Shown here: positions 3 to 62,913 of the stretch, piece by piece | Layout: each line of letters starts with the position of its first letter | Numbering within the stretch: the stretch's first letter is position 1 | Assembly: GCA_038881895.1 (NCBI GenBank) | Contig: JAVZOV010000001.1 | Coordinates: forward strand, 62,001-126,000 | Direction: 5' to 3' | From: Thermoprotei archaeon | GTDB taxonomy: Archaea; Thermoproteota; Thermoprotei; Gearchaeales; WAQG01 | DNA: 64,000 nucleotides | Position numbers and translations under genes: made by a program | The notes under the pieces: model-generated | Seen by the model: the letters and a program-made list of their open reading frames with translations, nothing else | Databases searched by the model: none | What the model was told of the DNA's origin: nothing

Positions 3-446
3 GACATAAATAAAAGTGTATGGGATGATGTATTTTCTGTTGATCTCTGGGGGGCTTTCCTTTGCTCCAAGGAAGCATCTAGAATTATGCTCAATCATGG
101 TCATGGTAGTATAGTGAATATAACCTCTACACCTGGTATTGCTGGTGGTAGTGATGGAATTGTTTATGCAATCGCAAAATCTGGTGTTATAGGGTTAACA
201 AGAACACTTGCTAATGTATTAGCACCAAAAATAAGGGTCAACGCTGTAGCGCTTGGAAGCATTAAGACTGATTGGTTACAGTGGATTAGTAGTAAAGATA
301 TCGAGGAACTTATTAATCGTATTCCGTTAAAAAGATTTGGGGAACCAGAAGAAGTAGCAAAAGTAGTATTGTTTCTTGCATCACAGGACTCAAGTTATAT
401 AACCGGGCAGATAATTATTATCGACGGAGGTGTAGTGACTTGTTGA
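3..446 (+). CDS. SDR-family oxidoreductase, C-terminal part (5' end outside window)
   Basis: The reading frame is open from base 3, so the N-terminal Rossmann half lies upstream of the window. The visible part has the SDR core: an N-I-T-S strand, the catalytic Y-A-I-A-K (YxxxK), and the usual C-terminal T-G-Q-x-I-x-x-D-G-G. This indicates an NAD(P)H-dependent short-chain dehydrogenase/reductase; the substrate cannot be told. The last residues and the stop codon (444-446) lie at or inside the right end of a miniature transposon that begins at 443, so the native C-terminus has been replaced, though only after the conserved D-G-G. Confidence 0.85.
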   Translation, partial: DINKSVWDDVFSVDLWGAFLCSKEASRIMLNHGHGSIVNITSTPGIAGGSDGIVYAIAKSGVIGLTRTLANVLAPKIRVNAVALGSIKTDWLQWISSKDIEELINRIPLKRFGEPEEVAKVVLFLASQDSSYITGQIIIIDGGVVTC

Positions 447-732
447 CACTCTCCACGGCTGAAGCCGGGAGATTCTCGGTTTGTCGTGGGGCTTCCACTC
501 ATTCTACCGAGTTCGGGCTGTGTCAAACCAGCCCCTGCCATGAGCATATAGCCCATAGCCCGCTCGCTGGAACCACCCCCGCCTTTCTCGGTTCGGAGCC
601 TTATTCCAGCTTTCGGACGTCCGAACTACATGCGAGCGACCCGCTCAAGGAGATGGTGGAATTGGAGGAATATAAACTTAACGGCGATTCATCTCCACGA
701 CCGAAGTCGGAAGCCTTCTCGCCGAAAGAATG
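443..732 (-). mobile_element. Miniature IS605/IS1341-type element, family A, copy 1
   Basis: About 290 bp with no complete gene. Read on the minus strand it has a left end with a hairpin (around 690-715), the conserved start of a family A tnpB (TTGAGCGGGTCGCTC, 632-648), then a jump to the tnpB 3' tail and the right end that finishes ...GAGAGTGTCAA at 443. The same tail and end occur in the full-size elements at 38829 and 61630, and the whole arrangement recurs at 40656 and 57834. It appears to be an internally deleted, non-autonomous copy that keeps the region expected to encode the TnpB guide-RNA scaffold. The left boundary is approximate and lacks the TTAC flank seen at other copies. Confidence 0.75.
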
Positions 733-784
733 GGTTGGTGAGCAGTTTTTGAATAGATAGATTTTTATAGACGTTTTGAGTTGA

Positions 785-10705: not shown

Positions 10706-10891
10706 ATGGAAGAAGAACTACTTAGACCAAAGGATGTTGCAAAGAAGTTCGGTATCTCAGTTAAAACGCTTTGGAAGTGGCAAAGGAAAGGCATTATTAG
10801 AGCAGTTAGGCTCCCAACTGGCAAGCTCCGCTATCCTAAGAGCGAGGTTGAGAGATTATGGAGGCAGTTAAAAGCTACAGGATCCCAGTAG
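10706..10891 (+). CDS. MerR-type HTH protein (IS607 TnpA N-terminal domain only)
   Basis: 61 aa from ATG 10706 (the frame is open to 10634). The sequence L-R-P-K-D-V-A-K-K-F-G-I-S ... W-Q-R-K-G-I-I is the MerR/excisionase DNA-binding domain found at the N-terminus of IS607 serine transposases. The ~130-residue serine-recombinase domain that should follow is absent; the protein ends 34 bp inside tnpB. The same HTH-only form occurs with a very different TnpB at 50528, which argues against simple decay. Likely role: binding the element's left end or its promoter. Confidence 0.75.
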   Translation: MEEELLRPKDVAKKFGISVKTLWKWQRKGIIRAVRLPTGKLRYPKSEVERLWRQLKATGSQ

Positions 10892-12006
10892 AGATTCCGA
10901 AGGATTTAATCGAAGAATACTTCAAAGTTAAGCAGAAGGCTTTAGACGCAATATTCTCGCACGTTAAAATTTCCAAGAAGGCTCACCTCGAATTCGATAG
11001 AGAGGATAGGAGAGAGCTTAGAGATGAATTGCTACGGGAGTGGAAATACTCAAAGCATTACGTTGATTCAACAATGAACTCTGTCGTAGGACTTGTTAAA
11101 GGCTGGATAACATTATATAACAAGGGGAAAGCTGAAGGTAAGCCTGAGATAACTAAGAGGACAGTCTACATTAAGAGCACGCTCTTCAGCTTCAGAAACG
11201 GCATATTGAGGGTAAGCGTAGAACCTAGTAAGCGGTATCTTGAGGTTGACTTGAGTAAGTGTTCGTGGATTCCGAGAGACTTTGATAAAGTCGGTGGACT
11301 ACTTATGACTGAGAGGGAGCTTATAGTAACGGTTAAGAAGAGGGTTGAGCCGAAGGCGGAAAAGTGGGCATCATTTGACGTTAACTTAACGAACATAACG
11401 GCGTTCATAGGTGGCGAAATCAAGCGCTATGACTTAAGAGAGCTCTACCATATTCACAGAGTCTATGAAACTAAGCTGCAGAGGATACAAAAGTTATCTA
11501 AGATTAAGCCCAATACATCAAAGAGACTATTAGAGAAGTACTCTAGACGTGAGGGGAGTAGAGCCAAGGACTTCATGCACAAACTAACCACGCAGGTTGC
11601 GGGGGAGCTCAAGGAGAAGAGCTGCGGAGCAATACTTGAAAACCTGAAAGGTGTAAAGAGGCGAATCCTCAACAAGTCTAAAGACATGAACAGAAAGCTC
11701 TCGAAGTGGAGCGCAAGGACGTTTCAGCTCATGCTTGAATATAAGCTGAAGTGGCTTAACCTACCAGTAAAATACGTTAACCCAGCCAACTCATCTAAAA
11801 CTTGCCCAGCCTGCTCAGGAAGCATGGCTTCCTATCTGGGCAGGATGATGAAATGCGAAGAATGCGGGTTAACAATGGATAGAGATATCATAGCGGTGTT
11901 GAACCTTCAGATGCGGGGAGAAGGGTTCCCCCAGAGAGACCCCGATGAGCTAATCGAGGGGGAAGGGTTAAGTAGGAATAAAAGCAACATATGCATTCCT
12001 ACTTAA
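10858..12006 (+). CDS. tnpB: TnpB-family RNA-guided nuclease (IS607-associated)
   Basis: 382 aa, intact. RuvC-I Asp is in S-F-D-V-N-L, RuvC-II Glu in A-I-L-E-N-L-K-G, RuvC-III in M-D-R-D-I-I-A-V-L-N. The zinc finger is C-P-A-C ... C-E-E-C. The usual Asn after the RuvC-III Asp is Ile. TnpB proteins cut DNA using a guide RNA from the element's 3' end. It overlaps the HTH gene by 34 bp. With the catalytic residues present, it is a candidate active nuclease rather than a TldR-type repressor. Confidence 0.88.
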   Translation: MEAVKSYRIPVEIPKDLIEEYFKVKQKALDAIFSHVKISKKAHLEFDREDRRELRDELLREWKYSKHYVDSTMNSVVGLVKGWITLYNKGKAEGKPEITKRTVYIKSTLFSFRNGILRVSVEPSKRYLEVDLSKCSWIPRDFDKVGGLLMTERELIVTVKKRVEPKAEKWASFDVNLTNITAFIGGEIKRYDLRELYHIHRVYETKLQRIQKLSKIKPNTSKRLLEKYSRREGSRAKDFMHKLTTQVAGELKEKSCGAILENLKGVKRRILNKSKDMNRKLSKWSARTFQLMLEYKLKWLNLPVKYVNPANSSKTCPACSGSMASYLGRMMKCEECGLTMDRDIIAVLNLQMRGEGFPQRDPDELIEGEGLSRNKSNICIPT

Positions 12007-19311: not shown

Positions 19312-19336
19312 AGATAAAAACGTTCATGCTTTATTA

Positions 19337-19440
19337 ATACTCTCTGCTAAAGTGGGGAGATTCTCGGTTTTCAATCTAGTGTTTCATCATACCGGTCATG
19401 CATACTGTTGAAGATGGCACCTGCTATGGAGGTAAGCACG
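19337..19440 (-). repeat. Decayed family A right end
   Basis: The stretch ACTCTCTGCT-AAAGTGGGGAGATTCTCGG aligns with the family A right end on the minus strand, and the match continues weakly through the CATCATACCG block to GCACCTGCTATGGA. No left end is recognisable. The remainder of the 260-bp gap between hef and the next gene shows nothing else. Confidence 0.55.
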
Positions 19441-19571
19441 ATATTCCGCTTACACGTGTTCTATCTCCATTTATTGAGTGACACGCTTAAATTAAGAAAC
19501 ACCAAGAGTTGATTAAGCTTATCAACAATTCATCTACTAAAGGACTAAGCTTTCAGAAATAAAGCTTCTTA

Positions 19572-22915: not shown

Positions 22916-22985
22916 TTGACACTCTCCGCGATTAAAGTCAGGAGATTCTTAGTCGAATCATCCGATCACCTCAAGGAAACCCACG
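22916..22985 (-). repeat. Decayed family A right end
   Basis: TTGACACTCTCCGCGATTAA followed by AGTCAGGAGATTCTTAG matches the family A right end (minus strand) with several substitutions. No left end or gene. It lies just outside the 3' end of the truncated nuclease-like gene. Confidence 0.6.
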
Positions 22986-22989
22986 AGCT

Positions 22990-23442
22990 TCAGATAACAT
23001 ATATATCACCTTGTTTATAATGATATTCAACTCTATATTGTTTGGGATTGCTTTTAATTAGAAAATACTGAGTTAAATCTAGTTTTACGAAAAACATAAG
23101 AAGAGGAAGTTTAAAGAACTCAAGAAACTGTCGACTATAAACTTTTAATGTTTTCCTTTGATGAGTATTAACTTCGATGACATATATTTCTCCATTCTTT
23201 TTAGCTAAGCAGTCGAAATAGAAATTTTTAGTTGGTCTAAAAACTTCTTTAAACCCGAGACTAGGTAAAATTTTCTCGATTACTAAATTTTCAGCAAGTT
23301 GAGAAGCATTAGAAACCTCGTTTGCATGCCAAAATTGTCGTTCTTTCTCGTAAATCTTTCTCTTATATTCCTGAAGTTTATCTTTATGTTTGATTCGGTA
23401 TTCCTGCTTCCATCTTTTGATTCTTTCTTTATGCTTTTGATA
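22990..23442 (-). pseudogene. PD-(D/E)XK-like nuclease gene, 5' end removed by IS607-like insertion
   Basis: A 150-codon open frame on the minus strand with no start codon, running up to the edge of element B2. It begins with a basic coiled region (K-H-K-E-R-I-K-R-W-K-Q-E-Y-R), as in many homing-endonuclease-like proteins, followed by F-D-C-L-A-K-K-N-G-E-I-Y-V-I-E-V-N, which resembles the D ... E-x-K core of restriction-like nucleases with Asn at the Lys position. I could not find a convincing 5' part beyond the element. Probably inactive now. Confidence 0.55.
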
Positions 23443-23444
23443 AT

Positions 23445-24535
23445 ATTGCCGTGGTCAACAGTTTTGAGATAGATAGGTTTAAATATTTGTTTAACTCTAT
23501 TAACTCTTTGATGGAAGAAGAACTACTTAGACCAAAGGATGTTGCTAAGAAGTTCGGTATCTCAGTTAAAACGCTTTGGAGGTGGCAGAGGAAAGGCATT
23601 ATTAGAGCAGTTAAACTTCCGACTGGCAAGCTGAGATATCCCAAGAGCGAAGTTGAGAGGCTATGGAAGCAATTAATTAAGAGCACGCTTTTCAGCTTCA
23701 GAGATGGCATACTGAGGGTAAGCGTAGAACCAAATAAGCGGTATCTTGAGGTTGACTTAAGTAAGTGTTCGTGGATTCCAAAAGACTTTGATAAAGTCGG
23801 TGGACTACTTATGACTGAAAGTGAGTTGATAATTACAGTTAAGAAGAGGGTTGAGCCCAAAAGCTGATAAGTGGGCATCATTTGATGTGAACTTAACGAA
23901 CGTGATGGCGTTCATAGGTGGCGAGATCAAGCGCTATGACTTAAGAGAGCTCTACCACATTCACAGAGTTTATGAGGTTAAAAGACAGAGGATGCAAAAG
24001 TTATCTAAAATTAAGCCCAATACATCAAAGAGACTATTAGAGAAGTACTCTAAGCGTGAGAAGAATAGGGCTAAAGACTTCATGCACAAGTTAACCACGC
24101 AGATCGCGGGGGAGTTCAGGGAGAAGAACTGCGGAGCGATACTTGAAAACCTGAAAGGTGTAAAGAGGCGAATCCTCAACAAGTCTAAAGACATGAACAG
24201 AAAGCTCTCAAAGTGGAACGCAAGAACATTCCAACTCATGCTTGAATACAAGCTGAAGTGGCTTAATTTACCAACAAAATACGTTAGCCCAGCTAACTCA
24301 TCTAAAACCTGCCCAGCCTGCTCTGGAAGCATGGCTTCCTATCTGGGCAGGATAATGAGATGCGAAGAATGCGGGTTAACAATGGATAGAGATATCATAG
24401 CGGTGTTGAACCTTCAGATGCGGGGAATTGGGTTCTCCCCGAGAGCCCTCAACGAATTAATCGAGGGGGAAGGGTTAAGTAGGAATAAAAGCAACAATTC
24501 ACTATGTATTCCTACTCAACTCAGAACCCGTGGGT
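23445..24535 (+). mobile_element. IS607-like element B2, decayed
   Basis: Nearly identical to B1 at both ends (ATTGCCGTGGTCAACAG at the left, CAGAACCC at the right). About 300 bp are missing from the 5' part of tnpB. It interrupts a nuclease-like gene. Confidence 0.8.
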
Positions 24536-24537
24536 AG
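23517..24537 (+). pseudogene. HTH-tnpB fusion with internal deletion and frameshift
   Basis: The MerR-type HTH domain is intact, but at about 23670 the sequence jumps from the end of the HTH gene to the middle of tnpB (short shared AATTAA at the joint), removing roughly the first 100 TnpB residues. A one-base insertion near 23863 (GAGCCCAAAAGCTGA against GAGCCGAAGGCG in B1) then breaks the frame; the remainder reads on to 24537 with RuvC-I Asp, RuvC-II Glu, zinc finger and RuvC-III still recognisable. Not a functional TnpB. Confidence 0.85.
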
Positions 24538-25597: not shown

Positions 25598-25968
25598 TAT
25601 ATTGAAGTAGTGAATATTTCATTTTATAAGCCTCACAAATTCTCTTAAGCGATAGTTCATTCATAAACAAATCACACTCATCAGTTATCCTTATCATGTT
25701 AATGTGGTTAAAACATCCTAATAAAGATATTCTTACCTAAAGTTTAATTCTTAGGAATTTGACTCTCTCCACGATCAAGGTCAAGGATTTTCAGTTCGTT
25801 TACTTGAGGTTTCATCCTATCGGGTTCTGGGATGCAGTGTTAATATACTTCTGCCCTATGGAAAGCTTTCACACCTCTTTAATATAGTGGAAATTTTCTT
25901 GAGAAAAGTTCATAAAAGGAGTATTAGTACAGGTTTATATCTTTGGAAGTTTAAAAGCAACAGTAACT
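25598..25968. other. Intergenic region with a decayed family A element (25759-25865)
   Basis: From 25759 the sequence TTGACTCTCTCCACGATCAA aligns with the family A right end, and similarity continues through CATCCTATCGGGTTCTGGG and CTGCCCTATGGA, so about 105 bp of a minus-strand copy survive. Otherwise only AT-rich sequence and the promoter of the MscS-like gene. Confidence 0.55.
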
Positions 25969-32243: not shown

Positions 32244-32693
32244 ACGTATTCAAATGAGATATATTTTAAGATATTTATATTCTTTATCACTTAAGTTATA
32301 ATGTAATAACAACAGAGAATAAAATTATTCAAAAGACTCAGTATAATAACTATATAAATATTAAAGAAACAAGTATTTAGATATAGATAAAATATTAATA
32401 AAACTTTACCTAAATCCAATAGAAAATCTTAAGGTTTTAACTTGTCGGATGAATCGTCAATGAGCTTAAATACAAATTATTTTGAACTGTAATGAATATG
32501 CCTCCACGGAAGCAAGACCAACGAGACAGTGACACACCTCTTACCTCTAAGATGGAATGGGATGGTGAAAGTAGAAGCTTCATGAACAGCTAGCTGATGA
32601 GAGTTTTAGAAGCAAGAATCTACTGACTTCAGCTGCAGAGAGTGTTAACAATAAATATAAATTATTGTTAAAGTAATTATTTAGTGAAGAATT
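32244..32693. other. Intergenic region with a decayed family A right end (32613-32650)
   Basis: On the plus strand AAGAATCTACTGACTTCAGC followed by TGCAGAGAGTGTTAA aligns with the family A end GAGAATCTCCCGGCTTTAGC-CGTGGAGAGTGTCAA. The preceding 80 bp (GACACACCTC... GATGGAATGGGATGG) may be the degraded tnpB tail. No gene. Confidence 0.5.
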
Positions 32694-38776: not shown

Positions 38777-38828
38777 GATTATTCACCCGATAGCATTAAT
38801 GTCAAAGTAAAATATAGCTTTTTCTTAC

Positions 38829-39970
38829 AGGAGTAAGCAGAGAAAGCCCATATTTTTAAATATGGGATGAATGCTATATATAATTGAGCGAGTCGCTCAT
38901 GAAGGCTAAGAAAACCATTAAGGCAAAGATTCTTGAACTACGCAAAGGCAAGGAAGAGCTTCTTAGAAGGGAATACGAGAATTGGCAACGCTATTTGCAT
39001 GGAGACAAGTTTGTTCCACTTTATTCTGCTACTCGACAGCAAGCCGATAGACTTCTGAGGCGAATTGGCAAGCCAAAGGAAGGAAAAGAATACCCGCTAA
39101 TCCTGAGGAGAGATGTCTATAGGGCTGACACCAAGCTGACGCCTTATTGGCTCAAGATTCCAATTTATGGGGTTAGAGGCGGAATAAACGTCCCTATAAA
39201 GACCCATGAACCAATAACTGATGACATGGTTTGCAAAGAAGCTAAAATCGTAAAGAAAGGTAATGAGTGGTTCATCTACATAACTGTCGAGAGGGAAGTC
39301 AAGGAGAGAAACCCTAAGTCGGCTTTAGCTATAGATGGGGATACGATGGATAGCCACAACAGTCAACTCAAGCAATCCAAAACCGAAGTTCTATGAGAGG
39401 GAGCTTAGGAGGGTTAAGGGGCATTTCTTCTGGCTTAGGAGAACCTTAGCCCTGAAGAAGTCATATAAAGCGATAAAGAAGATTGGGCGTAAAGAGAGAA
39501 GAGTTGTCAACGATATTCTCCATAAGATCAGCAGAGCCATAGTAAACGAAGCTTTGGCGAACGACTCCATGATAGTTCTTGGAAAACTCAAGGGCATAAG
39601 ACGAAACGGCGAGAGCAGGACTTTCAAAAGAAAGCTCAACAACGGATTCCCATACCATAGGCTAAGCCAATTCATAGAGTATAAGGCGAGATGGCACGGA
39701 ATCAAAGTTGTTAAGATAAGCGAAAGAAACACTTCAAAACTGTGCCATAAATGCGGTCACATGAGCATCCGAGTCGGAAGCCTGTTCAAATGTCAAAACT
39801 GCGGAATCCAATGCAACGCAGACTATAATGGAGCAACGAACATCCTTAAGCGGGCTATGGGCTACATGTCCATGGCAGGGACTGGTTTGACACAGCCCGG
39901 AACTCGGTATGATGAAGGCTTAAGCCTGAGGAACCGAGAATCTCCCGGCTTTAGTCGAGGAGAGTGTCAA
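38829..39970 (+). mobile_element. IS605/IS1341-type element A1, family A
   Basis: 1142 bp preceded by TTAC (38825-38828). The left end has a perfect hairpin CCCATATTT-TT-AAATATGGG; the right end finishes GAGAGTGTCAA at 39970. Encodes tnpB only, without tnpA. Boundaries are those supported by comparison with A2 at 61630. Confidence 0.85.
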
Positions 39971-39976
39971 TTTTAA
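38884..39976 (+). pseudogene. tnpB of element A1, 2-bp frameshift in RuvC-I
   Basis: Aligned with the intact copy at 61703, this gene has lost two bases: GATGGGGATACG here against GATATGGGGATACG. The first frame ends at 39396 and the rest reads from 39335 to 39976. The lesion falls right after the RuvC-I Asp. Start TTG 38884 corresponds to ATG 61703 in the intact copy. The remainder (zinc finger C-H-K-C ... C-Q-N-C, N-A-D-Y-N-G-A) is well preserved, so decay is recent. The stop codon lies in host DNA beyond the right end. Confidence 0.88.
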
Positions 39977-40655: not shown

Positions 40656-40946
40656 TTGACACTCTCCACGGCTGAAGCCGGGAGATTCTCGGTTTGTCGT
40701 GGGGCCTCCACTCATTCTACCGAGTTCTGGGCTGTGTCAAGGCAGCCCCTGCCATGAGCATATAGCCCATGGCCCGCTTGCTGGAACCACCCCCACCCGT
40801 CTTGGATGGGAGTCTTACTCCAGCTTTCGGGCGTCCCATCCACATCCGAGCGACCCGCTCAAGGAGCTGATGGAATTGGATGAATATAAAGTTAACGGCG
40901 ATTCATCTCCACGACTGAGGTCGGATGCCTTCTCGCCGAAAGAGTG
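40656..40946 (-). mobile_element. Miniature family A element, copy 2
   Basis: 291 bp. The minus strand reads TTTTAC (flank) then left end with short hairpin, TATA-like tract, tnpB start fragment (TTGAGCGGGTCGCTC), an inner stem GCTGGA/TCCAGC, tnpB tail and right end ending GAGAGTGTCAA. Same internal junction as the copies at 443 and 57834, so they descend from one deleted ancestor. Lies tail-to-tail with the DUF429 gene. Confidence 0.82.
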
Positions 40947-41017
40947 GTAAAACTCAATTGTAAAAGTTTAATTTATGCAAAGATACTATTTATAAGCTAG
41001 AAATTGTTTTAGCTTTT

Positions 41018-57598: not shown

Positions 57599-57721
57599 AC
57601 AAATATTTAAAAAACAAAACACATCCTAATTAAGTGAAAAATTAAATCCCAAAAATTGCATATGGATATATTTGTATGCTGTTTCAGAAATAATTCCTCT
57701 TCAAACTTAGAGAACTAGATT

Positions 57722-57763
57722 TACAACCTGAAAGCCTCCCTCTTTAGGGCGGGGAGGAGGTCA
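57722..57763 (+). repeat. TnpB-element right-end fragment, family D
   Basis: GCCTCCCTCTTTAGGGCGGG followed by GAGGAGGTCA is the right-end form typical of archaeal IS200/IS605 elements, with the hairpin-like CCCTCTTTAGGG. No attached gene remains in the 650-bp gap 57599-58252. Confidence 0.55.
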
Positions 57764-57833
57764 GCTATCGATAGGTGATTAACTGCATTAAAAATATTTA
57801 AGAACGCTTCATCTGTCAATAAGTACTGCACAG

Positions 57834-58120
57834 TTGACATTCTCCACGGCTGAAGCCGGGAGATTCTCGGTTCCTCAAGGCTAAGCCTTCATCATACCGA
57901 GTTCCGGGCTGTGTCAAGCAGCCCCTGCTATGGACGTGTAGTCCATGGCCCGCTTGCTGGAATCATCCCCACTCTTCTCGGTTCGGAGCCTTATTCCAGC
58001 CTTCGGACGTCCCATCCACATCCGAGCGACCCGCTCAAGAAAACATTGTTTAAGCACTTATTTAAGCCTATCGACGATTCATCCCAGAACAGAAGCTCTA
58101 GGCTTTCTCGTTGCATTTTT
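57834..58120 (-). mobile_element. Miniature family A element, copy 3
   Basis: 287 bp. The minus strand shows flank ATTAC, left end A-rich then GAGAAAGCCTAGAG... with a partial hairpin, tnpB start fragment, inner stem GCTGGAA/TTCCAGC, tnpB tail and right end ...GAGAATGTCAA. Of the three copies, its left end is closest to those of the full elements. Confidence 0.82.
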
Positions 58121-58252
58121 GTAATTTTCTTTTATTGTTAAATATTTTTCAATTATACCGAAAACTTTGTCTTTGAAGGGAATGATGCTAACTTAACATG
58201 TGTCAAGCTAGTTGAGGGCATACTTGATGATACGTTTGTTGTTATTCCTAGT

Positions 58253-60308: not shown

Positions 60309-61629
60309 ATGAAAAACGAAATGTATCCTACAAAAACAAACAATACTGGAACAGGAGGCTCATCATTTTCTCACACATCTAAAATAATAGTCCTAATAGT
60401 TGCTACATTCGCATCATTCATGACACCATTCGACTCTAGCATAGTAAACCTAGCCATTCCTTCTATTGGAAAAGATTTGGGAGGAAATATAGAACTCCTA
60501 GGCTGGATCCCTATTGCTTATTTAATGGCACTATCGATATTTTTTATACCGTTTGGAAGACTCGCAGACATACATGGAAGAAAGTTAATATTTGTTTTAG
60601 GGATATCAACATTCGTAGAAGGTTCACTAGCATGCAGTTTATCACCATCCCTACCACTTCTAATAGCTTTTAGATTCATTCAAGGATTGGGATCAGCGAT
60701 GATGGGAGGCACCGCCATAGCATTAATAACATCAGTATTCCCACCAGGAGAAAGAGGCAAAGCACTGGGTATCAACACAGCAGCAGTATACGTAGGATTA
60801 TCACTGGGACCTCCTTTAGGTGGTTTTTTAGTGCAGTACTTAGGTTGGAGATCAATATTTTATGTAAACATTCCAATAGGTATTATAGTAATCATACTCA
60901 CATTAATCAAAATTCATGAAAAAAATTATATTAAAGATGAGAAATTTGACCACATTGGTTTCATGCTATATTTTCCTTCATTAACATTAATATTTTTAGG
61001 TCTCACACTATTACAACACACATTTGCAAATGAAATACTAATTATCGGTATCCTAATCTTACCGTTATTTTTTACCTATGAATATTATGTTTCCCATCCG
61101 CTAATAGATGTTGAATTGTTTAAGAACCTTACATTTACATTTTCCAACATTACCGCCCTTCTTAATTATAGCTCAACATATGCAATCTCCTTTATAATGT
61201 CTCTTTATCTGCAGCTAATCCTTAAACTTGATCCACAATACACCGGATTAATACTTTTATCTCAACCATTATTAATGGCTATATTCTCACCATTTGGCGG
61301 ATGGCTCTCTGATAAAATAGAACCCAGGATTATTGCATCAATAGGAATGGCATTAATATCCGTATCAATTTTAAGATTATCATTCTTAAATATTAACACA
61401 TCCATCCTAGATATAGTATCATGGTTAATGATACTAGGATTTGGATATGCCCTCTTTAGCTCGCCCAATACCAACGCAGTCATGAGTTCTGTAGAGAGAA
61501 CCAAATATGGTATCGCTTCAGGAATACTTGGAACCATGAGGTTCACAGGACAAGCACTCAGCTTAGCGATCACAGTGTCAATCTTCTCAACAATCACCAG
61601 AACAGTAATAACCACAACAGGCAATTTAC
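60309..61629 (+). pseudogene. MFS transporter (DHA2/14-TM drug-efflux type), 5' part, interrupted by element A2
   Basis: 440 codons before the insertion. Starts M-K-N-E-M-Y-P, about 13 transmembrane segments, with the DHA2 motifs D-S-S-I-V-N-L-A-I-P and L-A-D-I-H-G-R-K (motif A), and G-L-S-L-G-P-P-L-G-G (motif C). The element is inserted after TTTAC; without it the frame continues directly into 62795-62913 and gives 479 aa. The split protein lacks its last helix and instead reads into the transposon left end, stopping at 61670; partial function cannot be excluded. Confidence 0.85.
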
Positions 61630-62794
61630 AGAGACGTAGCAGAAAGCCCATGATTTTAATCATGGGATGAATGCGTTTAAATACTTGTCAGTTAATTTTT
61701 CTATGGGCGAGTCGCTCATGAAGGCTAAGAAAACCATTAAGGCAAAGATTCTTGAACTTCGCAAAGGCAAGGAAGAGCTTCTTAGAAGGGAATACGAGAA
61801 TTGGCAACGCTATTTGCATGGAGACAAGTCTGTTCCACTTTATTCCGCTACAAAGCAACAGGCTGACAGACTTCTAAAGAGGCTTGGAAATGTTAAGCCT
61901 AACAAGGAATACCCGCTAATTCTGAGGAGAGATGTCTATAGGGCTGACACCAAGCTGACGCCTTATTGGCTCAAGATTCCAATTTATGGGGTTAGAGGCG
62001 GAATAAACGTCCCTATAAAGACCCATGAACCAATAACTGATGACATGATTTGCAAAGAAGCTAAAATCGTAAAGAAAGGTAATGAGTGGTTCGTTCACAT
62101 AACTGTTGAAAAAGAAGTGGAAGAGAGAAACCCTAAATCAGCTCTAGCAGTTGATATGGGGATACGATGGATAGCCACAACAGTCAACTCAAGCAATCCG
62201 AGACCGAAGTTCTATGGGAGAGAGCTTAGGAGGGTTAAGGGGCATTTCTTCTGGCTTAGGAGAACCTTAGCCCTGAAGAAGGCACATAAAGCGATAAAGA
62301 AGATTGGGCGTAAAGAGAGAAAGGTGGTTAGCGACATCCTGCATAAGATTAGCAGAGCCATAGTAAACGAAGCTTTGGCGAACGACTCCATGATAGTTCT
62401 TGGAAAACTCAAGGGTATAAGACGAAACAGCAGAGGTAGGACCTTCAAAAGAAAGCTCAACAACGGATTTCCATATTATAGGCTAAGCCAACTCATAGAG
62501 TATAAGGCGAGATGGCGCGGAATCAAAGTTGTTAAGATAAGCGAAAGAAACACTTCAAAGCTGTGCCATAAATGCGGTCACATGGGCATCCGAGTCGGAA
62601 GCTCCTTCAAATGTCAAAACTGCGGAATCCAATGCAACGCAGACTATAATGGGGCAACGAACATCCTTAAGCGGGGCATGGGCTACATGCTCATGCCAGG
62701 GGGTGATTTGACACACCCCGAACTCGGTAGGATGAAGGTATACGAAAGCCCAACGAACCGAGAATCTCCCGGCTTTAGCCGTGGAGAGTGTCAA
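61630..62794 (+). mobile_element. IS605/IS1341-type element A2, family A, intact
   Basis: 1165 bp, inserted in an MFS gene immediately 3' of TTTAC (61625-61629). Left end hairpin CCCATGATT-TT-AATCATGGG (61649-61668); right end ...GAGAGTGTCAA at 62794. Removal of exactly this interval restores the host gene's frame (A-A-T-T-T-A-C then C-A-A-T-A-G-A), which fixes both borders. One gene, tnpB; no tnpA, so movement would need a transposase in trans. Confidence 0.9.
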
Positions 62795-62800
62795 CAATAG
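61703..62800 (+). CDS. tnpB: TnpB-family RNA-guided nuclease, RuvC-II variant (family A)
   Basis: 365 aa from ATG 61703 (frame open to 61667 through the left-end hairpin). RuvC-I Asp in A-V-D-M-G-I-R; zinc finger C-H-K-C ... C-Q-N-C; RuvC-III in C-N-A-D-Y-N-G-A-T-N. The RuvC-II position reads V-L-G-K-L-K-G-I-R: the usual Glu of E-D/N-L-K is Gly (codon GGA), as in the A1 copy. The Glu in I-S-E-R-N-T-S may take its place. The last two codons lie outside the element: the stop TAG is in MFS sequence. Confidence 0.88.
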   Translation: MGESLMKAKKTIKAKILELRKGKEELLRREYENWQRYLHGDKSVPLYSATKQQADRLLKRLGNVKPNKEYPLILRRDVYRADTKLTPYWLKIPIYGVRGGINVPIKTHEPITDDMICKEAKIVKKGNEWFVHITVEKEVEERNPKSALAVDMGIRWIATTVNSSNPRPKFYGRELRRVKGHFFWLRRTLALKKAHKAIKKIGRKERKVVSDILHKISRAIVNEALANDSMIVLGKLKGIRRNSRGRTFKRKLNNGFPYYRLSQLIEYKARWRGIKVVKISERNTSKLCHKCGHMGIRVGSSFKCQNCGIQCNADYNGATNILKRGMGYMLMPGGDLTHPELGRMKVYESPTNRESPGFSRGECQQ

Positions 62801-62913
62801 AACCACAGAAATTCTTAACAGGCATGAAACTAACATTAATCATCATGACCATCATATGCACTATTGGTATATTCACATCACTCATTAGAGGAAAAATAAA
62901 AATCAACAAATAA
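62795..62913 (+). pseudogene. MFS transporter, 3' fragment separated by element A2
   Basis: After the right end the frame beginning ATA 62797 reads I-E-P-Q-K-F-L-T-G-M-K-L-T-L-I-I-M and a hydrophobic helix, finishing R-G-K-I-K-I-N-K. This is the missing last transmembrane helix of the MFS protein that starts at 60309. It has no start of its own. Confidence 0.85.

What the first reader, a model, noticed from the sequence alone, without database searches (positions are those of the whole stretch)
61625..62800. Exact excision reconstructs the host gene and defines element borders and TAM (5'-TTAC)
Deleting 61630-62794 joins AATTTAC to CAATAGAACC and restores an uninterrupted 479-aa MFS frame. 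The same right end and left-end spacing place A1 after CTTAC (38825), miniature copy 2 after TTTTAC and copy 3 after ATTAC. Four of five copies therefore follow TTAC, the expected target-adjacent motif for transposition and TnpB recognition. Copy 1 at 443 lacks it and borders another remnant.
Basis: seen in the sequence. Interest (0 to 1): 0.55.

Follow-up and report, generated by a model that had tools for sequence, protein, structure and literature searches.

The report
TnpB-only jumping gene with TTAC target

Summary
Deleting 61630-62794 joins TTTAC to CAATAGAACC and leaves a 479-codon DHA2-type MFS frame; the rejoined C-terminus matches the last helix of its closest homologues (11-15 of 34 residues, five closest). 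In the whole genome 41 right ends were found (a lower bound); 37 have a readable left end. TTAC lies at the hairpin-anchored position in 31 of 37, against 3.7% expected per copy; 33 of 37 end in TCAA.

The element carries IS608's published cleavage and guide tetranucleotides, TTAC/AAAG and TCAA/GAAT (PMC5934647). In relatives the right cleavage and guide sequences co-vary in 17 of 20 readable ends. It is a TnpB-only (IS1341-like) member of the IS200/IS605 group with about thirty miniature derivatives, presumably moved by a Y1 TnpA in trans; the only TnpA found belongs to another IS605.

TTAC as this TnpB's TAM is inferred, not tested; another TnpB with a tested TTAC TAM is published (PMC12781874). 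This TnpB lacks the canonical RuvC-II glutamate but has the published alternative one in 18 of 18 aligned homologues. No empty site in a close relative was available.

The parts
60309..61629 (+). 5' part of the host DHA2-type efflux MFS gene
   Evidence: TIGR00711, 241.1 bits, cut-off 230.2
61626..61629 (+). TTAC: left cleavage/target site (CL) and presumed TAM; host DNA
61630..62794 (+). the inserted TnpB-only element (1165 nt)
61643..61646 (+). left guide tetranucleotide AAAG (GL), 13 nt inside the left end
   Evidence: compared with IS608
61647..61666 (+). left-end hairpin CCCATGATT-TT-AATCATGGG
   Evidence: sequence
61667..62800 (+). tnpB ORF, 377 codons, running through the right end into host DNA; D163, E293 (alternative position), D326 and four zinc-finger cysteines present
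62669..62794 (+). right end / omega-RNA scaffold with co-varying helices
62762..62765 (+). right guide tetranucleotide GAAT (GR)
   Evidence: compared with IS608
62766..62786 (+). right-end hairpin CTCC-CGGC-TTTA-GCCG-T-GGAG with one unpaired T
   Evidence: sequence; pairs
62791..62794 (+). TCAA: right cleavage site (CR), last bases of the element
62795..62814 (+). predicted guide segment of the omega RNA (host flank)
   Evidence: inference from published TnpB biology; position
62795..62913 (+). 3' part of the host MFS gene with its stop codon (62911-62913)
38829..39970 (+). copy A1 after TTAC 38825-38828; tnpB frameshifted (ORFs 38884-39396 and 39335-39976)
40656..40946 (-). miniature copy 2, after TTAC (40947-40950)
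57834..58120 (-). miniature copy 3, after TTAC (58121-58124)
443..734 (-). miniature copy 1, no TTAC; left border approximate

Best explanation
61630-62794 is a non-autonomous, TnpB-only IS200/IS605-group element (IS1341-like organisation) with IS608-type ends. Shown here: exact borders, TTAC at the left junction, TCAA at the right end, IS608's guide tetranucleotides 5' of each hairpin, a right-end RNA scaffold with compensatory changes, and a tnpB under purifying selection. Inferred: a Y1 TnpA acting in trans cuts one DNA strand after TTAC and TCAA, using AAAG and GAAT as DNA guides, seals the donor without a footprint and reinserts the circle 3' of another TTAC; TnpB with its right-end RNA then recognises TTAC plus the 3' flank in emptied sites and cuts them, so that repair restores the element. 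Miniature copies keep both ends and the RNA scaffold and probably depend on TnpA, and perhaps TnpB, supplied by others.
For: Frame and last helix restored. TTAC in 31 of 37 copies, TCAA in 33 of 37. IS608 uses CL TTAC, CR TCAA, GL AAAG, GR GAAT (PMC5934647 passages). CR-GR covariation in 17 of 20 relatives' right ends; on the left, AAAG with TTAC in 9 of 16 readable ends and AAGA with TTAT in 5. No gene other than tnpB seen in the six long copies. RNA helices: 14 of 31 pairs changed on both sides, 57 such cells against 19.0 in shuffles, 0 of 500 shuffles as high. TnpB families above cut-off in Pfam and NCBIfam; dN/dS 0.12-0.18 between the three intact copies.
Against: The only TnpA found in the genome (97% complete) belongs to a different, GC-richer IS605 whose right end is TCAG/GAAC, and 11 of 19 genome handles with homologous tnpB gave no TnpA match (many incomplete, at least one genome counted twice), so the mobiliser is not identified. 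Six of 37 copies lack TTAC at the expected spacing. Unlike IS608, which prefers C after TTAC in the target, the base after the right end shows no C preference here (T16 A11 C6 G4). Two of 16 relatives' left ends (L093, L095) do not clearly fit the guide rule and 3 of 20 right ends break it. The AlphaFold model of TnpB was unusable (mean pLDDT 40). The TAM was not tested.
Confidence: 0.9

Rival explanations
1. TTAC is only the transposase target, and this TnpB reads a different or looser motif or no longer cuts, so calling TTAC its TAM is wrong.
For: The residue at the canonical RuvC-II glutamate is glycine in 18 of 18 aligned proteins. Flanks define only where insertion happened; there are no cleavage data.
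Against: A glutamate occupies the alternative position (E293, six residues before the first zinc-finger cysteine) in the same 18 of 18, the layout called Ealt in PMC10711439. tnpB is under purifying selection. TAM and target coincide in ISDra2, and SfaTnpB has a tested TTAC TAM.
Confidence: 0.15
2. The TnpA of the IS605 on contig C6 now mobilises family A in trans.
For: It is the only Y1 TnpA found; its left end is also TTAC with AAAG before the hairpin.
Against: Its hairpins differ, its left spacing is 5 nt instead of 13-16 and its right end is TCAG/GAAC; its GC (0.49 against 0.32-0.33 in the flanks) suggests late arrival, while family A copies are diverged.
Confidence: 0.2
3. Chance: the in-frame length and TTAC are coincidences.
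For: An in-frame join alone has a 1-in-3 prior.
Against: 31 of 37 different flanks carry TTAC at fixed spacing, binomial tail about 1e-38; the same end types recur in other genomes.
Confidence: 0.005

Closest known systems
IS608 (Helicobacter pylori), IS200/IS605 family
   Same: Left cleavage site TTAC, right TCAA, guides AAAG and GAAT 5' of subterminal hairpins (PMC5934647, passages)
   Different: No tnpA in the element; other hairpins; 11 of 31 miniature copies have AAGG as left guide; no preference for C after the insertion site
IS1341-type TnpB-only elements (label recalled, no ISfinder comparison made)
   Same: tnpB as the only gene between IS605-type ends
   Different: About thirty miniature derivatives that keep the right-end RNA scaffold
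ISDra2 TnpB and its reRNA (PMC8612924, passages)
   Same: Right-end RNA plus flank as guide; target motif equal to insertion site
   Different: ISDra2 uses TTGAT; here TTAC, and the RuvC-II glutamate is moved
SfaTnpB of Savagea faecisuis (PMC12781874, passages)
   Same: TTAC motif, shown experimentally there (NTAC tolerated)
   Different: Bacterial protein; not aligned with this one here; TAM only inferred here
Ealt TnpBs / pro-Fanzors (PMC10711439, passages)
   Same: Glutamate six residues before the zinc finger
   Different: RuvC-I is DMG or DLG in the closest homologues here, not DPG; IS605-type, not IS607-type ends

Membership tests
IS200/IS605 group (IS608-like ends) | Subterminal hairpins with guide tetranucleotides, insertion 3' of a fixed short target, no target duplication | tested here: met
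   (no shared bases at the join)
IS200/IS605 group (IS608-like ends) | Y1 TnpA encoded by the element | tested here: not met
   no tnpA in the six long copies, hence non-autonomous; one TnpA elsewhere in the genome
IS1341-type (TnpB-only) | tnpB as only gene between IS605 ends | tested here: met
TnpB RNA-guided nuclease | OrfB/TNB domains, D-E-D RuvC residues and zinc finger | tested here: met
   Pfam and NCBIfam above cut-off; the E only at the alternative position
TnpB RNA-guided nuclease | Canonical RuvC-II glutamate | tested here: not met
   Gly246 in 18 of 18; Glu there in the six solved chains whose alignments were printed, five of them near-identical
Ealt TnpB | Glu six residues before the first zinc-finger Cys | tested here: met
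   Glu293-Cys300, 18 of 18; also in viral-contig homologue L115
TnpB RNA-guided nuclease | RNA-guided cleavage next to TTAC | not testable with these tools
   needs biochemistry
omega RNA | Structured right-end RNA with co-varying helices | tested here: met
   Rfam matched only two tRNAs in the window, nothing at the right end

The most novel reading that the evidence does not exclude
A few intact Ealt TnpBs act in trans with some thirty dispersed miniature elements, each providing its own guide RNA for its own TTAC-flanked site, so that one nuclease maintains a whole population of gene-less elements and the cutting of empty sites is distributed over the genome.
Probability: 0.3. Interest if true: 0.55.

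Novelty: new member of a known kind. Interest (0 to 1): 0.27.

Why it matters
It fixes the borders, insertion motif, RNA scaffold and guide rule of an archaeal TnpB family whose catalytic glutamate is moved, and gives 31 natural TTAC junctions plus co-varying end variants. Two questions become directly testable: whether TAM and transposase target stay coupled when the transposase gene is absent, and whether an Ealt TnpB can use guide RNAs from miniature copies.

Tried and rejected
Chance explanation of TTAC: rejected. Nuclease-dead (TldR-like) reading of the Gly at RuvC-II: considered, then disfavoured because Glu293 is invariant and fits the published Ealt layout. Relatives in viral contigs: none with the single protein, two with the alignment. 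Off-site guide targets: 41 guides of 16 nt against TTAC sites in the window and own-genome loci only (239 kb with overlaps, not the whole genome), up to 3 mismatches: one site, seen in two overlapping loci, with 2 mismatches to the guide of L027. Conservation along 24 miniature copies does not clearly single out the RNA scaffold: 15-column blocks of the scaffold outside its variable loop score 0.68-0.89, of the middle 0.58-0.73 with one block at 0.36, so selection on the RNA rests on covariation. Alignment A3 had misplaced coordinates for relatives and was replaced by A4 (21 of 41 own right ends plus 6 relatives). Whether the C6 insertion sits in an intact gene stayed unclear. Literature: nine searches answered; in the listings I saw no archaeal TnpB-only family with TTAC, but I read only listings there and most subscription papers are not held. 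PMC12558985 and PMC11870625 were looked at by passages and gave nothing on miniature copies.

Full report
Observation. The window lies in a 1.75 Mb, 7-contig assembly. That it is archaeal is inferred: a genome of the same phylum (G069) gives the same TnpA coordinates as the genome behind L085, a Bathyarchaeota record, and the closest tnpB homologues are in archaeal records. At 61630-62794 a 1165-nt segment interrupts a DHA2-type efflux MFS gene (TIGR00711). Joining the flanks gives 479 codons with no ambiguity at the join. Because an in-frame join is a 1-in-3 event, I aligned the rejoined C-terminus with 14 homologues: the part after the element matches their last helix with 11-15 of 34 identical residues in the five closest and 3-9 of 34-39 in the other nine. 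The best MFS match in 40 relatives is 42% identical, and none of the 40 gave a right-end DNA match, so no true empty site could be examined.

Flanks genome-wide. BLAST with the element gave 43 matches (40 of 70 first-look candidates were scored, so this is a lower bound). They resolve into 41 right ends and two left-end pieces of copies already counted. Six are near full length; the rest are miniature or fragmentary. Thirty-seven have a readable left end. Anchored on the left guide, TTAC lies 13-16 nt before it in 31 of 37; one more (L034) has TTAC at 3 nt; five have none. Background is 0.0047 per position, the binomial tail about 1e-38. The base before TTAC varies. The right end is TCAA in 33 of 37. 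A covariance model from 27 right ends finds five strong copies in the window (132-143 bits), four weaker matches (21-36 bits) and one at E 0.07.

Which mechanism. TTAC, TCAA, AAAG and GAAT are IS608's left and right cleavage sites and left and right guides (PMC5934647; passages seen). The contacts of T-4 and T-3 with A+17 and A+16, in my reading the second and first guide base, are in that paper; the pairing of position -1 with the fourth guide base is recalled. Applied to relatives' right ends, 17 of 20 satisfy all three pairs, as TCAA-GAAT, TCAC-GAAG and TCAG-GAAC; L092, L103 and L110 do not. On the left 16 ends were readable: ten TTAC (nine with AAAG; L093 unclear), one CTAC (L095, not fitting), five TTAT with AAGA. 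These were picked by eye from the 26 loci. The covariation argues that the ends are, or recently were, read by a Y1 transposase, although no long copy encodes one. The one TnpA found in the genome sits in a different IS605 on contig C6, with a TTAC/AAAG left end, a TCAG/GAAC right end and higher GC than its flanks. Of 19 genome handles with homologous tnpB, 8 have a TnpA match; G069 and G402 are evidently one genome, and G167 and G400 perhaps too, since L083 and L089 agree where shown. One difference from IS608: it prefers C after TTAC, whereas the base after the right end here is T16 A11 C6 G4.

TnpB. The window copy is a 377-codon ORF. Of six long copies three have an uninterrupted core (window, L002, L003) and three are frameshifted (L004, L005, L006). 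Pairwise dN/dS is 0.12-0.18 among the intact three and 0.04-0.12 in comparisons with or among four relatives, one pair being saturated. In an 18-sequence alignment Asp163 and Asp326 are invariant, the canonical RuvC-II position is Gly246 in all 18, and Glu293 is invariant. Printed alignments of six solved chains, five of them near-identical, have Glu at the first and Pro at the second position. A glutamate six residues before the zinc finger is the published alternative arrangement, Ealt (PMC10711439; passages seen). So the enzyme is probably active. TTAC as TAM is plausible: it has been shown for the bacterial SfaTnpB (PMC12781874; passages seen), but it is untested here.

Omega RNA. Twenty-seven right ends (21 own, 6 relatives) support five helices: 94.1% of cells paired, 14 of 31 pairs changed on both sides, covariation score 0.283 against 0.148 in shuffles and 0.06-0.08 when partners are slid. 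The structure was predicted from the same alignment, and related sequences can exceed shuffles without structure, so the figure is supportive, not a probability. Helix 5 is also the DNA hairpin that TnpA would need, and helices 1-2 overlap the tnpB end in long copies. Conservation alone does not clearly single out this region.

Verdict. It is a new member of a known kind. The more interesting open point is whether the miniature copies share the intact TnpBs.

Noticed in passing
window 57720-57764; L118 1490-1535; compare L031/L044: Two 40-nt units (TTTAC, then AACCTGAAAGCCTC..CTTTAGGGCGGGGAGGAGGTCAG) look like the left and right ends of the C6 IS605 fused into one hairpin; a pattern search of the own genome finds these two and the IS605 itself.
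   Followed up: partly
window 19334-19451 (-), 22916-23016 (-), 25759-25879 (-), 32569-32648 (+): Weaker right-end RNA-model matches (21-36 bits), probably decayed relics of the family; the last has TTTAC at 32405-32409 before a recognisable left end, 239 nt from TTAC to the right end.
   Followed up: partly
window 10858-12006 and 23451-24537: A second TnpB family in two copies about 88-93% alike in the matched blocks; the second lies next to an ORF with weak IS607-transposase similarity, below the model's cut-off.
   Followed up: no
L040, L043; relatives L098-L101, L106, L108, L111: A subfamily with right end TCAC; guide GAAG in the relatives and L043, GAAT in L040. Five of the relatives have TTAT/AAGA left ends.
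   Followed up: partly
L009-L026 (miniature copies): 11 of 31 miniature copies with a readable left end have guide AAGG and another hairpin; left-end type and right-end loop type occur in several combinations (for example L010/L017 and L022/L024), suggesting exchange between ends.
   Followed up: no
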